From: Dipodascopsis uninucleata var. uninucleata
Taxonomy: Eukaryota; Ascomycota; Lipomycetes; Lipomycetales; Lipomycetaceae
Direction of reading: 5' to 3'
DNA length: 64,000 nt
Assembly: GCA_030568195.1 (NCBI GenBank)
Contig: JAJLTO010000002.1
Coordinates: 62,001-126,000, forward strand
Position 1 is the stretch's first letter, and the number at the start of each line of letters is the position of its first letter. The notes under the pieces are model-generated. The model had not been told where the DNA came from. It worked only from the letters and a program-made list of their open reading frames with translations, and searched no databases. Positions 22,716 to 29,284 of the stretch are shown piece after piece. Both the position numbers and the translations under genes were made by a program.

Positions 22716-24440
22716 ATGCCTTCTTTTGTCGCATCTTCATCACCTGCAACTTCAGAAAGCATGGCATCTACTAATGTTGGCGGTGGCGCACCTCAGAGTG
22801 TCCAAAATGAACGTCCAATTCTCTCAAGTTCAAGGAGCGGTGGTGTTGTTTCTAATGGTCTTGTATCACCTTCTTCACAATATGATATGCAATTCAATCC
22901 TCTACTTCCTAGCCAGCTTTTACTTGGCTCTCCCTTTCAGTCGGGCACTCCCTCTGCTGCATTTACTTCTCCCCAAGTTGCTTTTCCCGCATCGCCATCT
23001 CTTAGTCCAGGATTTAATCCGGCCGACCAATATGTTGGTATTCCTTATCAGTCATATGTTGACCTGGCTGGACTTGGTGATATAGGCGGTTCCGGTTCAT
23101 CTTCACAAATTGTACAAGCGTCAAGGACCGTTTACCTTGGCAATGTACCTTCAGAGACGACTGCGGAGGAATTACTTTCTCATGTTCACTCTGGACCAGT
23201 GGAATCAGTTCGAATGCTTCCTGAGAAAAACTGTGCTTTTATCTCATTCCTTGATGTTGCGTCTGCTTCTCATTTCCACTCGGATGCAATTCTTAGAAAG
23301 CTCTCAATTCGCTCGCAAGACATTAAGATTGGATGGGGTAAACCATCCCCAGTGCCTATGAACACGGTTGTTGCTGTTCAACAATCTGGTGCTTCAAGGA
23401 ATGTTTATTTAGGGAATTTACCAGAGACTATTACAGAAGATGAAATTAGAGAAGATCTCGGACGTTTTGGTCCAATCGACACCATCAAGCTTGTTCGTGA
23501 GAAGCCAATTGGATTTGTACACTTCCTTTCCATCTCGAGTGCCATTAAGGCTGTTCAACAGCTTCCACAAGAGCCAAAATGGTCCAACCGAAAGGTATAT
23601 TATGGTAAAGACAGATGTGCTTATGTTTCCAAAACGCAGCAGCAAAATGCTGCTCAGTTTCTTGGTATTACACCTGGTTATGAACACCTTGTTGCGAACG
23701 CGGATCGTGATATGATCTCCAATGCCCTTGCACAACAGTCGGCAGCAGCCGCGGCGGTTGTAACTACTACTGGTGGTATGGCTAATTTGGGTAACCGAAC
23801 AGTCTATCTAGGTAGCATTCATCCGGATACCACACTAGAGGAGATATGTAATGTTATTCGTGGTGGTCTTTTACATCATATCCGATATATTCCTGATAAA
23901 CATATCTGCTTTGTCACGTTTGTCGATCCAACTGCAGCAGCGCAGTTTTTTGCAATGTCAAATATCCAGGGCCTGATGATCCACAGCAGAAGGCTGAAGA
24001 TTGGCTGGGGTAAGCATTCTGGACCTCTCCCTGCTGCAATTGCTCTCGCCGTTACCGCAGGTGCTAGCCGAAATGTTTATGTTGGTAATATAGATGAGTC
24101 TTGGACGGAAGATAGACTTCGAAAAGATTTCTCTGAATACGGAGAAATCGAGCTTGTTAATACCCTTCGAGAAAAATCTTGTGCGTTCGTCAATTTTACA
24201 AATATTGCCAATGCAATCAAAGCAATCGAAGGAATAAAGCAGAAGGAAGAGTACCGTAATTTCAAGATCAATTTTGGAAAGGATAGATGTGGTAATGCTC
24301 CACGGCCTCTGAATATGGGTGCTCATAACCACAGTAACCATGAGGTGCAAACAAATGGTAACAGTCAGTCAGTTGAAGATATCGCAGTTGCTCCTGAAGG
24401 TGATGTTGCATCTTCTGTTCTTGACATACCTTCTAGTTAA
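22716..24440 (+). CDS. MRN1: Four-RRM RNA-binding protein, Mrn1 (budding yeast) / Nrd1-Msa2 (fission yeast) type
   Basis: A single exon of 574 residues with ATG at 22716. A low-complexity Ser/Ala/Pro N-terminus of about 130 residues precedes four RRMs that start SRTVYLGNVPSE, SRNVYLGNLPET, NRTVYLGSIHPD and SRNVYVGNIDES. RRMs 1 and 3 each end in KIGWGK, and RRMs 2 and 4 in a conserved GKDRC (YYGKDRCAYV, NFGKDRCGNA), an arrangement typical of this family. The N-terminus includes SPSSQYDMQFNPLLPSQLL, near the MAPK-phosphorylated region of Nrd1. Homologues repress differentiation mRNAs or stabilise myosin mRNA. The very long 5' leader also fits a regulated gene. Confidence 0.92.
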   Translation: MPSFVASSSPATSESMASTNVGGGAPQSVQNERPILSSSRSGGVVSNGLVSPSSQYDMQFNPLLPSQLLLGSPFQSGTPSAAFTSPQVAFPASPSLSPGFNPADQYVGIPYQSYVDLAGLGDIGGSGSSSQIVQASRTVYLGNVPSETTAEELLSHVHSGPVESVRMLPEKNCAFISFLDVASASHFHSDAILRKLSIRSQDIKIGWGKPSPVPMNTVVAVQQSGASRNVYLGNLPETITEDEIREDLGRFGPIDTIKLVREKPIGFVHFLSISSAIKAVQQLPQEPKWSNRKVYYGKDRCAYVSKTQQQNAAQFLGITPGYEHLVANADRDMISNALAQQSAAAAAVVTTTGGMANLGNRTVYLGSIHPDTTLEEICNVIRGGLLHHIRYIPDKHICFVTFVDPTAAAQFFAMSNIQGLMIHSRRLKIGWGKHSGPLPAAIALAVTAGASRNVYVGNIDESWTEDRLRKDFSEYGEIELVNTLREKSCAFVNFTNIANAIKAIEGIKQKEEYRNFKINFGKDRCGNAPRPLNMGAHNHSNHEVQTNGNSQSVEDIAVAPEGDVASSVLDIPSS

Positions 24441-25373: not shown

Positions 25374-26690
25374 TCACTCAGAACTACCAGGAACTTCTTC
25401 TATCTCTAAAGCCCACTTATCTATTTCCCGAAATTTCTCCTTGAGCATCTGATTTTCTAGAATTTGACTCTGTTCCAGCTCTTTGTCATTGAGATTTTCG
25501 TCTTCAGAATTTATATCAACTAATTGCCGATCCTCGTGCGATCCGTCTATCAGTGGTATATTGTTCCTTTGTTTACCGGAATTATGGACCTGTCTAACTG
25601 CAGATTGTGATCTACGAATTGATTTACTTGAATTCTCATCAACTCTTTTGTCTGAAAGTGGATTCGATGCCTGTCTTTTATTTCGCAGCTTTCCGATATC
25701 TTTATTTACCTTAGTTGACAGCATTGCGTTGTTTAATCCTGGGTTAACATTCTCTTTATCATTCTGTATGCTTCGTTTTGCTCGTCTAGCAAATTTCCTT
25801 GCTTGCGTCTCTTCCAGATTGTAATCATCATCGCTTCTCAATGCACCGAAATCTTCGTCGGAATATACAGTTTTTACTCGTTTTTTACGTCCTCGTCGAG
25901 GAAGTAACTCTGTTAACTGGGCTGTATTTAGGTCCTTAACTATCTTAGCTTTGTTTGTCGGGAGCTGTTGTTGGATTGGAGGTAGCGACGGAGAAGACGG
26001 TAGAGAAGGTGAATGTGAGAGTACAGAGAGCGGTGACGAAGAAACGGATGCTAAGCTATGGGCCTCTAAACTGCCAATCTCCTGTGCACGGTCGATATTT
26101 TGGTCACTATCATCGCTAACATCATCCGAATATTTATCTTGTTCTTCGGCGTGAATTACGCGAATACCCGCTATTTTGTTGAAACCAAATGGATCAGAAG
26201 ACGATGAAAGGAGTGGTGAGCTGGATTCTTCTGCCATAGTCTCTACTTTTGGATGGTGCCAATTATGCTGTTGTACAGCTGTCTTTGGTGTAGATGTCGA
26301 GCGAGGCAAGAACATCCCTGACTCATCAGCTATCTCGTCCAATGTGATTCTTGAGTTATCCAGAAGATCACGATCATCCATCTCTGATAAATGTATAAGC
26401 GACTCTTCATCCGTTCCCTGGTTAATATCTGCTACACTTGGCGCAGTGCTATCAGCAACCACTAGTTTGATTTCATGCTGTTCTGTTTCTTCGCCGACCT
26501 CGACGCTGTCATTATGTCCTGCTATTCTACTATTCTCACTTTTTCTGCTGGATCTGCGTGAAGACTTCAAAGAGACAGTTTTATATCGTGTACCAGTAGT
26601 TTCACCTGCAGCCATTTCCTTAAGTTCCTCGTGGCGTTGTGGCCTTTTAGACACGAGCCCGACCTTGCGTCTTCGTGATGCACGAGGCAT
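25374..26690 (-). CDS. Sororin-like chromatin/cohesin regulator candidate
   Basis: A single exon of 438 residues, ATG at 26690, otherwise low-complexity and charged. Four features stand out: a basic N-terminus (MPRASRRRKV); an FGF motif in SSDPFGFNKI at about 167-170; a LPRRGRKKR patch at about 263-271; and a KEN box in QNDKENVNPG at 312-314. A C-terminal helix reads KFREIDKWALEIEEV. Sororins carry an FGF motif that competes with Wapl for Pds5, a KEN degron for APC/C-Cdh1, and a short C-terminal helix of the EIDEW type. The order and spacing fit. I also recall uncharacterised ascomycete proteins with the same DPFGF, LPRRR, DKEN and EVDKWELEFE blocks. The assignment is an inference from short motifs. 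Ser/Thr-Pro and SP sites in the middle could be CDK targets. Confidence 0.55.
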   Translation of the reverse strand: MPRASRRRKVGLVSKRPQRHEELKEMAAGETTGTRYKTVSLKSSRRSSRKSENSRIAGHNDSVEVGEETEQHEIKLVVADSTAPSVADINQGTDEESLIHLSEMDDRDLLDNSRITLDEIADESGMFLPRSTSTPKTAVQQHNWHHPKVETMAEESSSPLLSSSSDPFGFNKIAGIRVIHAEEQDKYSDDVSDDSDQNIDRAQEIGSLEAHSLASVSSSPLSVLSHSPSLPSSPSLPPIQQQLPTNKAKIVKDLNTAQLTELLPRRGRKKRVKTVYSDEDFGALRSDDDYNLEETQARKFARRAKRSIQNDKENVNPGLNNAMLSTKVNKDIGKLRNKRQASNPLSDKRVDENSSKSIRRSQSAVRQVHNSGKQRNNIPLIDGSHEDRQLVDINSEDENLNDKELEQSQILENQMLKEKFREIDKWALEIEEVPGSSE

Positions 26691-26909
26691 TCTTCCTATG
26701 TAGAAGTCGCCTTAACTTACAACTCTTCAATCGCGCCCGAGTGTCAAGCGTATTAGATCTAGATTATTTAAACTAGCAAAATTCTATCCTTATCGGGATA
26801 TTCTGATGAATTTGATGTTTTCCTACTGTACGCAGATTGATCATGCTTGTACGCTGCAGTTCTATGCAAACAATCCTGTTATTCGCATATTTTGTTTATA
26901 CACGCGTAA

Positions 26910-27534: not shown

Positions 27535-29284
27535 ATGAATAGTGCGGATATTCTTTCAGAATCATTTATACATAAAAAGGCTTGCGATCCGCAGCATATT
27601 GAGAGTGTAGAATGCACGTCTACTCGATCTAATCATAACCCTGACTCGCAGACAAAGAAAGGGGATCCAACAGTAAACACTAGTAAAATGGCTGTTAGCA
27701 GCAATAGCGGTCAAGAGCTCTTAAGTAATGGTACGATGAAGTACCGAGTGCAGGACACTGTACTCGACCTCATTGGTATGACACCTATGGTCCGGCTCAA
27801 CAAGATTCACAAGAATATGGGAATTCGAGCAAACATATGTAAGTATGATCGCTGTTTTACGCTTGCTAGAACTACAACACGAGCACTAACGAGTCGTTAT
27901 CAATAATTTTAAAGTACTCAAATTAGAGTACTTCAATGCTGGTGGTTCTGTTAAGGACAGAATTGCAAAGCTAATGGTTGAGGAAGCTGAGGCTAGCGGC
28001 AGAATTAAACCTGGGGTGACAACTTTGATCGAGGCTACATCAGGAAACACTGGTATTGGTCTTGCACTTGTTGCAGCAGTAAAAGGCTATAGGCTCATAG
28101 TAACTATGCCAGAAAAGATGTCGCACGAGAAAGTTTCCGTTCTTAAGGCGCTTGGTGCTGAGATTGTAAGAACTCCAACAGAGGCAGCATGGGACTCACC
28201 GGAGAGCCATGTTGGTGTAGCGAAGAAACTGCAAAGAGAAATACCAAATTCTATAATTCTTGATCAGTATTCAAATCCAGCTAATCCTGAAGCACACCAA
28301 GTTGGTACAGGTGAGGAAATATGGTTACAGACCGGAGGAAAAATCAGTGCTGTCGTGGCTGGTGCAGGAACTGGAGGAACAATTTCTGGTGTCTCTAGAG
28401 CACTCAAGCGGCACGATCCAAAAATCAAGATCGTTGGAGTTGATCCAGTTGGATCCATTTTGGCATTGCCAGAGACCCTTAATTCCAATATTCTACCCTA
28501 CAAGGTAGAAGGAATTGGTTATGACTTCATTCCAAAAGTCATGGATCGCTCAACGGTCGACGAGTGGGTGAAAACTAACGATGCTGACTCATTTCACCTG
28601 GCTCGTAGATTAATAAGAGATGAGGGGGTTCTATGTGGAGGCAGCGCGGGATCCGCACTACAAGGAGCATTTGAGTACGCGAAGAGGAACAATTTAACCG
28701 AGAATGATACCATTGTCGTAGTAGTACCTGATGGCATACGATCATATCTGACCAAGTTTGTATCCGATGACTGGATGAAATCGAATGGATTTGAGACTGA
28801 TTCAACTATTATTGACAAGTCTAAAAAATTTAATGCCGCAACCATTGCTGATATGAATCTCAAGCCCGTCGAGACAATAAATGAGACTGATACCGTATCA
28901 AAAGCAGTTGAGATTATGAAATCGAAAGGTTATGATCAGCTACCCGTACTTGATAAAAACGGATTGTTTACCGGTCTCGCGACACTGGGCCACATTCTTT
29001 CGCTCATTGCTGGCAAGCGTCTATCACTAAACTCAAAGGTCGGTCAGGCTAAACTAGATATTTCCAACAGCTTGAGTCCTCGCGATCAAAGAATGAGACC
29101 AGGTTCTGAGACTTTTGGTGTTGTTCACGTAGGAACGCCGTTATCTCATTTAACAGACTTCTTCGAATATAATTCCGCAGCTATCGTTACTGATACTGGT
29201 GGTGCACATGCAAAACCTGTGCATGTCGTTACTAAGGTTGACGTGCTAGAGTATCTGATGAAAACCGGGTTAGATATTATTTAG
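27535..29284 (+). CDS. CYS4: Cystathionine beta-synthase
   Basis: Two exons, 27535-27838 and 27915-29284; the 76-nt intron has GTAAGT, a CACTAAC branch and an unusual TTTTAAAG acceptor. 557 residues if the first ATG is used. The PLP-binding core carries [13 protein letters not shown] (Schiff-base Lys), [29 protein letters not shown] and KVEGIGYDF. Two CBS repeats follow ([23 protein letters not shown]). The N-terminus shows no human-type heme-binding Cys/His, as in yeast. It condenses serine and homocysteine to cystathionine. The core begins near residue 70, and in-frame ATGs at 27688 and 27736 would remove most of the extension, so the true start is open. Confidence 0.95.

What the first reader, a model, noticed from the sequence alone, without database searches (positions are those of the whole stretch)
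25374..26690. A fungal sororin candidate: FGF, LPRR patch, KEN box and EIDKW-type C-terminal helix in one protein
Seen: DPFGF at about 167-170, LPRRGRKKR at about 263, KEN at 312-314 and KFREIDKWALEIEEV near the C-terminus, in an otherwise disordered 438-residue protein. Known: animal sororin protects cohesion by displacing Wapl from Pds5 through an FGF motif, is degraded through a KEN box, and has a short conserved C-terminal helix; sororin-like proteins have been reported in fission yeast. Inference: this is the same family, and the LPRR patch is a fungal-specific conserved block. Most annotation would leave it hypothetical.
Basis: partly seen in the sequence, partly recalled or inferred. 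Interest (0 to 1): 0.8.

Follow-up and report, generated by a model that had tools for sequence, protein, structure and literature searches.

The report
Fungal sororin, guardian of sister chromatids
This mostly disordered yeast protein is very probably sororin, the protein that stops paired chromosomes from coming apart too early; a relative in the same yeast group was already proposed in print, and what is new here is mainly which docking motifs different fungi appear to have kept.

Summary
In detail: a 438-residue ORF (25374-26690, minus strand) with FGF 168-170, LPRR 263-266, KEN 312-314 and KFREIDKWALEIEEV 419-433. Its family (12 Lipomycete proteins including this one) reaches Pezizomycotina by profile (Alternaria E 1.9e-5). 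The C-terminal box meets 8 of 12 positions of the published animal sororin consensus and has the spacing of the four residues tested in S. pombe Sor1. The genome also encodes Wapl, Pds5, Scc3, Eco1 and Haspin. Corrections: the conserved block is AQLTELLP, not LPRR; FGF is not a mark of all fungal sororins. Pezizomycotina relatives lack FGF (0 of 121) but carry an animal-like YSR motif just before KEN (120 of 121, a selected set); Lipomycetes have FGF (12 of 12) and no YSR (0 of 12). I saw this split and the TAQL block in none of the text I read. Function is inferred; no complex was modelled.

The parts
25374..26690 (-). sororin gene, one open frame, 438 aa plus stop
26664..26690 (-). N-terminal MPRASRRRK (residues 1-9), basic; M1 P2 R3 R6 R8 invariant in Lipomycetes; MPR start in 92 of 121 Pezizomycotina relatives
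26283..26312 (-). FLPRSTSTPK (residues 127-136); STP is a minimal CDK site and a possible Polo-box docking site (recalled consensus)
   Evidence: FLPx(2-4)STP in 11 of 12 Lipomycetes and 99 of 121 Pezizomycotina
26160..26198 (-). SDPFGFNKIAGIR (residues 165-177), FGF motif block
   Evidence: FGF in 12 of 12 Lipomycetes, 0 of 121 Pezizomycotina
25893..25925 (-). TAQLTELLPRR (residues 256-266), shared fungal block; 257-264 invariant in 12 of 12; short helix 256-261 in the AF2 model
25749..25757 (-). KEN box (residues 312-314)
   Evidence: KEN in 12 of 12 Lipomycetes and 120 of 121 Pezizomycotina relatives
25419..25487 (-). predicted C-terminal helix (residues 402-424)
   Evidence: mean pLDDT of the blocks 71-85
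25392..25436 (-). Sororin box KFREIDKWALEIEEV (residues 419-433), overlapping the end of the helix

Best explanation
The ORF is the Lipomycete orthologue of sororin, a cell-cycle-regulated, disordered antagonist of Wapl. Proposed working: (a) the C-terminal helix and box (402-433) dock on replicated, acetylated cohesin, at the Smc3:Scc1-N gate and/or Scc3, and keep the gate shut; (b) the DPFGF..I segment occupies the C-terminal trough of Pds5 and/or the Wapl cleft, so that Wapl cannot open the gate; (c) the STP block lets CDK and perhaps Polo kinase take it off in mitosis; (d) the KEN box lets APC/C-Cdh1 destroy it after mitosis. Family membership is supported by sequence; (a) and (b) are inferred from S. 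pombe, animal and AlphaFold work in print; (c) and (d) are inferred from motifs alone. The AQLTELLP block is guessed to be a further contact site, partner unknown.
For: Lipomycete orthologues with the same order of blocks from first to last residues. Profile reach to Pezizomycotina (Alternaria E 1.9e-5, Diaporthe E 0.018); profile-profile comparison 97.9% probability, on the SSPLS-to-TAQL stretch only. Separately, an HMM of the C-terminal 45 residues of 121 Pezizomycotina relatives finds 12 of 12 Lipomycete proteins (P0001 weakest, E 6.3e-4) ahead of every other window frame (best E 0.13). Pfam Sororin_C is the commonest Pfam match in the family: 36 of 57 members, best E 0.01. Box fits the animal consensus at 8 of 12 positions; F420/I423/D424/W426 have the spacing of S. 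pombe F299/V302/D303/Y305, whose alanine mutants all failed to rescue, though expressed at reduced levels (section 8 read); the pattern is in the last 60 residues of 12 of 12 and 121 of 121. AF2: helix 402-424, the rest almost all disordered. Wapl, Pds5, STAG, Haspin and Eco1 families are in the genome, Pds5 with an APDAP loop. In S. pombe, Sor1 co-precipitates with Pds5 and Psm3, and wpl1 deletion partly suppresses the sor1 deletion.
Against: No Pfam match for this protein worth the name (DUF1543 E 0.12); Sororin_C is in 0 of 12 Lipomycetes (whose one match among 14 members is P0013) and was not found in the genome at E 10. The 36 of 57 are close relatives of one another, and the bit scores seen (13.7, 14.4) are well under the cut-off of 27.4. 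The leading aromatic, the N, the F/Y (W here) and the E after it in the animal consensus are not met. No YSR in 12 of 12 Lipomycetes. By plain invariance the box is not outstanding (26 of 426 windows as good), and the strict box pattern is met near the C-terminus by 11 of 12 and 80 of 121. An HMM of the Pezizomycotina TAQL block finds only 4 of 12 Lipomycetes above HMMER's inclusion threshold. The genome's Wapl frame has no FGF and no [F/W]xF, so a contest of like motifs for Pds5 is not evident. No complex was modelled; nothing here is experimental.
Confidence: 0.86

Rival explanations
1. A disordered nuclear protein that shares only the sororin box (as plant Haspin does) and does something else at cohesin than oppose Wapl.
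For: The box is short; Arabidopsis Haspin carries such a box (PMC11148194 Discussion); Lipomycetes give no Sororin_C match.
Against: No other domain recognised in the protein; one match in the genome; FGF, KEN and STP blocks are conserved beside the box; Haspin is a separate gene.
Confidence: 0.09
2. A Sld2/Drc1-type replication factor or another low-complexity nuclear protein.
For: Lipomyces japonicus P0002 matches Drc1-Sld2 at E 0.003, 17.8 bits, below the cut-off of 28.
Against: The genome has Drc1-Sld2 matches over the cut-off elsewhere (best E 6.6e-13); 1 of 57 family members matches; that match lies in a charged low-complexity stretch (by eye).
Confidence: 0.02
3. Chance assembly of short motifs in a disordered protein.
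For: KEN appears in 3083 of 20,000 shuffles.
Against: FGF, KEN and the TAQL block are in 12 of 12 proteins whose identity to the window protein is 25-33%; strict box pattern in 0 of 200,000 shuffles. The other 11 are related to each other more closely than to this one.
Confidence: 0.01

Closest known systems
Lipomyces starkeyi sororin candidate Lipst1_1|72111 (Prusen Mota et al. 2024, PMC11148194)
   Same: Same yeast group; C-terminal match. L. starkeyi proteins P0006 and P0008 are found by our profile and hold all blocks.
   Different: That the named JGI protein is P0006 or P0008 is inferred, not checked by accession. The passages read give only its C-terminal match and no FGF, KEN or TAQL block for it; figures were not seen.
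S. pombe Sor1 (SPAC9E9.05)
   Same: C-terminal box with F, V/I, D and aromatic in the same spacing; a putative FGF motif.
   Different: Sor1 has no KEN box found; its sequence was not fetched or aligned here.
Vertebrate sororin (CDCA5)
   Same: FGF, KEN and C-terminal sororin box in a mostly unstructured protein.
   Different: No YSR; the box lacks the leading aromatic; here KEN lies between FGF and box, in vertebrates near the N-terminus (recalled).
Pezizomycotina sororins (Pyrenophora candidate, Sordaria SMAC4_08091, Aspergillus fumigatus protein of the AlphaFold study)
   Same: In the 121 retrieved relatives: TAQL-type block ending LPRRR (121 of 121) and F..[VIL]D.[YFW] (121 of 121); FLPx(2-4)STP in 99; MPR start in 92.
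   Different: No FGF (0 of 121) and a YSR/YGR-type motif just before KEN (120 of 121). Sordaria sororin itself is reported to lack FGF and KEN and was not fetched here.

Membership tests
Sororin | C-terminal sororin box, the feature common to all members (PMC10656103) | tested here: met
   8 of 12 consensus positions, 3 of 5000 shuffles as good; F..[VIL]D.[YFW] in 12 of 12. But no Pfam Sororin_C match
Sororin | Box region forms a short C-terminal helix, rest unstructured | tested here: met
   AF2 helix 402-424, block means 71-85; mean pLDDT 48.6 overall
Sororin | Basic (K/R-rich) stretch just before the box | tested here: inconclusive
   Basic residues are frequent at about 327-375, but about 380-408, next to the helix, is acidic (by eye)
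Sororin | FGF motif (common to vertebrate sororins; absent in Arabidopsis) | tested here: met
   12 of 12 Lipomycetes; flanks fit the vertebrate consensus only in part
Sororin | YSR motif (common to vertebrate sororins; not stated as common to all members) | tested here: not met
   0 of 12 Lipomycetes; listed in print as a vertebrate feature, the box alone as common to the family
Sororin | KEN box (vertebrates, Drosophila; not found in S. pombe or Arabidopsis) | tested here: met
   12 of 12 Lipomycetes; weak alone, 3083 of 20,000 shuffles have one
Sororin | Binds cohesin and Pds5 and antagonises Wapl | not testable with these tools
   Partner families are in the genome; no multimer prediction or experiment
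Drc1-Sld2 | PF11719 match | tested here: not met
   None for P0001; matches over the cut-off lie elsewhere in the genome

The most novel reading that the evidence does not exclude
Ascomycete sororins split the two animal docking motifs between clades: Lipomycetes keep FGF and lack YSR, Pezizomycotina keep YSR/YGR beside the KEN box and lack FGF, while both share a TAQL..LLP block. If so, FGF and YSR are interchangeable ways to hold sororin on Pds5 or Wapl, and nature has already done the motif-swap experiment. The motifs lie on opposite sides of the TAQL block (FGF before, YSR after), so shuffling or independent gain is as possible as reciprocal loss.
Probability: 0.45. Interest if true: 0.6.

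Novelty: new member of a known kind. Interest (0 to 1): 0.42.

Why it matters
How sororin blocks Wapl is still unsettled, and FGF and YSR are said not to be essential when the protein is overexpressed (PMC10656103). Two fungal clades that each appear to carry only one of the motifs would make their separate roles testable in simple organisms, and the TAQL..LLP block may point to a contact not described in the text I read.

Tried and rejected
Pfam, and PDB by sequence, for the protein alone or its C-terminal piece: nothing meaningful. Pfam Sororin_C against the whole genome: none at E 10 (one of 14 prokaryote controls rings, below cut-off). Sld2 reading: rejected. A YSR-like site in the window protein (TVYSDED, just after the LPRR block): Y[SG]R in 0 of 12, rejected. 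MluI cell-cycle box upstream (26902): 9 in the window against 6.0 expected, 19 of 100 shuffles reach 9. A search for the recalled Polo-docking site of human sororin: 39 papers hold 3 of the 4 terms, none of the 8 listed holds ST159P; the Polo idea stays recalled.

Its query region contained the YGR and KEN motifs, so 120 of 121 is a selected count; only P0013 and P0014 were found by a query without a YSR motif, and both have TYG plus KEN (2 of 2). For A3 I gave 45 of the 121 and for A5 32 of the 121, chosen by hand. All three protein searches are used.

Full report
The finding is real. The genome (16.2 Mb, 25 contigs) gives one match, the gene itself. Its nearest relatives are hypothetical proteins of Lipomyces and Limtongia, so the organism is inferred to be a Lipomycete yeast; no tool names it. 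'Lipomycetes' below means the 12 proteins P0001-P0012, the window protein included; 'Pezizomycotina relatives' means P0013-P0133 (121), some without an organism name.

Conservation. The other 11 Lipomycete proteins are 25-33% identical to the window protein. Invariant in all 12 are MPR..R.R at the start, F.P..TSTPK, DPFGF..I.GI, SPL, AQLTELLP, K.N of the KEN box and K-F-...-D-.-W-.-L-..-E of the box. KEN itself is in 12 of 12, but that of P0012 does not align with the others. Of 438 residues 43 are invariant. Windows as conserved as the block: TAQL 5 of 428, FGF block 9 of 426, FLP..STPK 8 of 429, N-terminus 24 of 430, box 26 of 426, KEN 33 of 436. So by invariance the TAQL, FGF and STP blocks stand out, the box and KEN do not. 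The LPRR of the finding is the end of the TAQL block; RR is not conserved within Lipomycetes.

Sororin box. An animal consensus from PMC10656103 (section 10, part 1 of 2 read), with my coding of the hydrophobic class, is met at 8 of 12 positions in 11 of 12 Lipomycetes and at 6 in Limtongia; in the four Pezizomycotina relatives scored it is 9 or 10. Three of 5000 shuffles of the protein reach 8, none more. A stricter pattern is met near the C-terminus by 11 of 12 and 80 of 121. In S. pombe, alanine at F299, V302, D303 or Y305 of Sor1 abolished rescue, though the mutant proteins were expressed at reduced levels (PMC11148194, section 8 read); the window protein has F420, I423, D424 and W426 in the same spacing. 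F..[VIL]D.[YFW] is within the last 60 residues of 12 of 12 and 121 of 121. AF2 gives a helix 402-424, a short helix 256-261 and little else (mean pLDDT 48.6, pTM 0.20).

Bridge to the known family. A profile of seven Lipomycetes reaches Alternaria (E 1.9e-5) and Diaporthe (E 0.018). hhalign joins the two groups at 97.9% through the SSPLS-to-TAQL stretch only. An HMM of Pezizomycotina C-termini finds 12 of 12 Lipomycetes, P0001 weakest at E 6.3e-4, with the best other window frame at E 0.13; an HMM of their TAQL block finds P0001 at E 2.2e-5 but only 4 of 12 Lipomycetes above HMMER's inclusion threshold. Pfam's Sororin_C is the commonest Pfam match in the family, 36 of 57 members, best E 0.01; the two bit scores seen are 13.7 and 14.4 against a cut-off of 27.4, and it appears in 0 of 12 Lipomycetes. 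The 45 Pezizomycotina members scanned are close relatives, so 36 are not 36 independent matches.

Setting. The genome has Wapl, STAG, Haspin and Eco1 matches over the Pfam cut-offs, and Pds5 exon by exon at one place. The Pds5 locus holds an APDAP loop; the Haspin frame holds RRTYGRR; the Wapl frame holds TYGSQRSFL, which fits the fungal Wapl motif TYxxxR[T/S](hydrophobic)L quoted in PMC10656103 (passages), and PTTYGRK near its start, which fits the other motif except at its first position. The Wapl frame has no FGF and no [F/W]xF, a point against a contest of like motifs for Pds5; the frame may miss an exon.

Motif split. FGF is in 12 of 12 Lipomycetes and 0 of 121 Pezizomycotina relatives; Y[SG]R is in 0 of 12 and 120 of 121, the exception being Diaporthe with RTYGSR; the stricter Pds5-interaction pattern is in 115 of 121. 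In 120 of 121 the YSR-type motif stands 2-9 residues before KEN. The large group was fetched with a query that held YGR and KEN, and 120 of 225 hits were listed, so the count is selected; P0013 and P0014, found without YSR in the query, agree. PMC12758814 (passages read) reports no FGF and no KEN in Sordaria sororin, so KEN is not universal there; the passages do not say whether a YSR-type motif is present.

Literature. PMC11148194 (abstract, sections 6, 8, 14 and passages read) already nominated sororins in Lipomyces starkeyi (E 0.0041), Yarrowia and Pezizomycotina. A search for sororin with Lipomyces gave only that paper, and one for sororin, YSR motif and fungi gave three; of these I read parts of two (PMC11148194, PMC10656103) and saw no statement of the FGF/YSR split or of the TAQL block. 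PMC8198109 was seen in the listing only. The library holds open-licence papers only.

Verdict: a new member of a known kind, well supported by sequence, with function inferred.

Noticed in passing
P0013-P0133 (Pezizomycotina relatives): KTYSRR/RTYGRR motif, close to the animal Pds5-interaction motif, 2-9 residues before KEN in 120 of 121 (selected set).
   Followed up: partly
P0013, P0014 and A5 members: A further conserved block NFKRRARQPS(I/L)L in the N-terminal half, seen in the alignment rows of P0013 and P0014 and the A5 consensus, not in the Lipomycete rows.
   Followed up: no
window 26283-26312 (residues 127-136): FLP..STP block conserved in both fungal groups (11 of 12, 99 of 121), a candidate CDK/Polo site.
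   Followed up: partly
window 26902-26907: ACGCGT (MluI cell-cycle box, recalled) 212 bases upstream of the start codon; not above chance for the window.
   Followed up: yes
window 22716-24440: Protein with several RNA recognition motif matches.
   Followed up: partly
window 27535-29284: Frame 27974-29284 matches pyridoxal-phosphate enzyme and CBS domains; with the frame 27535-27906 before it, likely cystathionine beta-synthase split by an intron (inferred), divergent from the sororin gene.
   Followed up: partly
L012: Haspin frame with RRTYGRR, the motif type that the Pezizomycotina sororins carry.
   Followed up: partly
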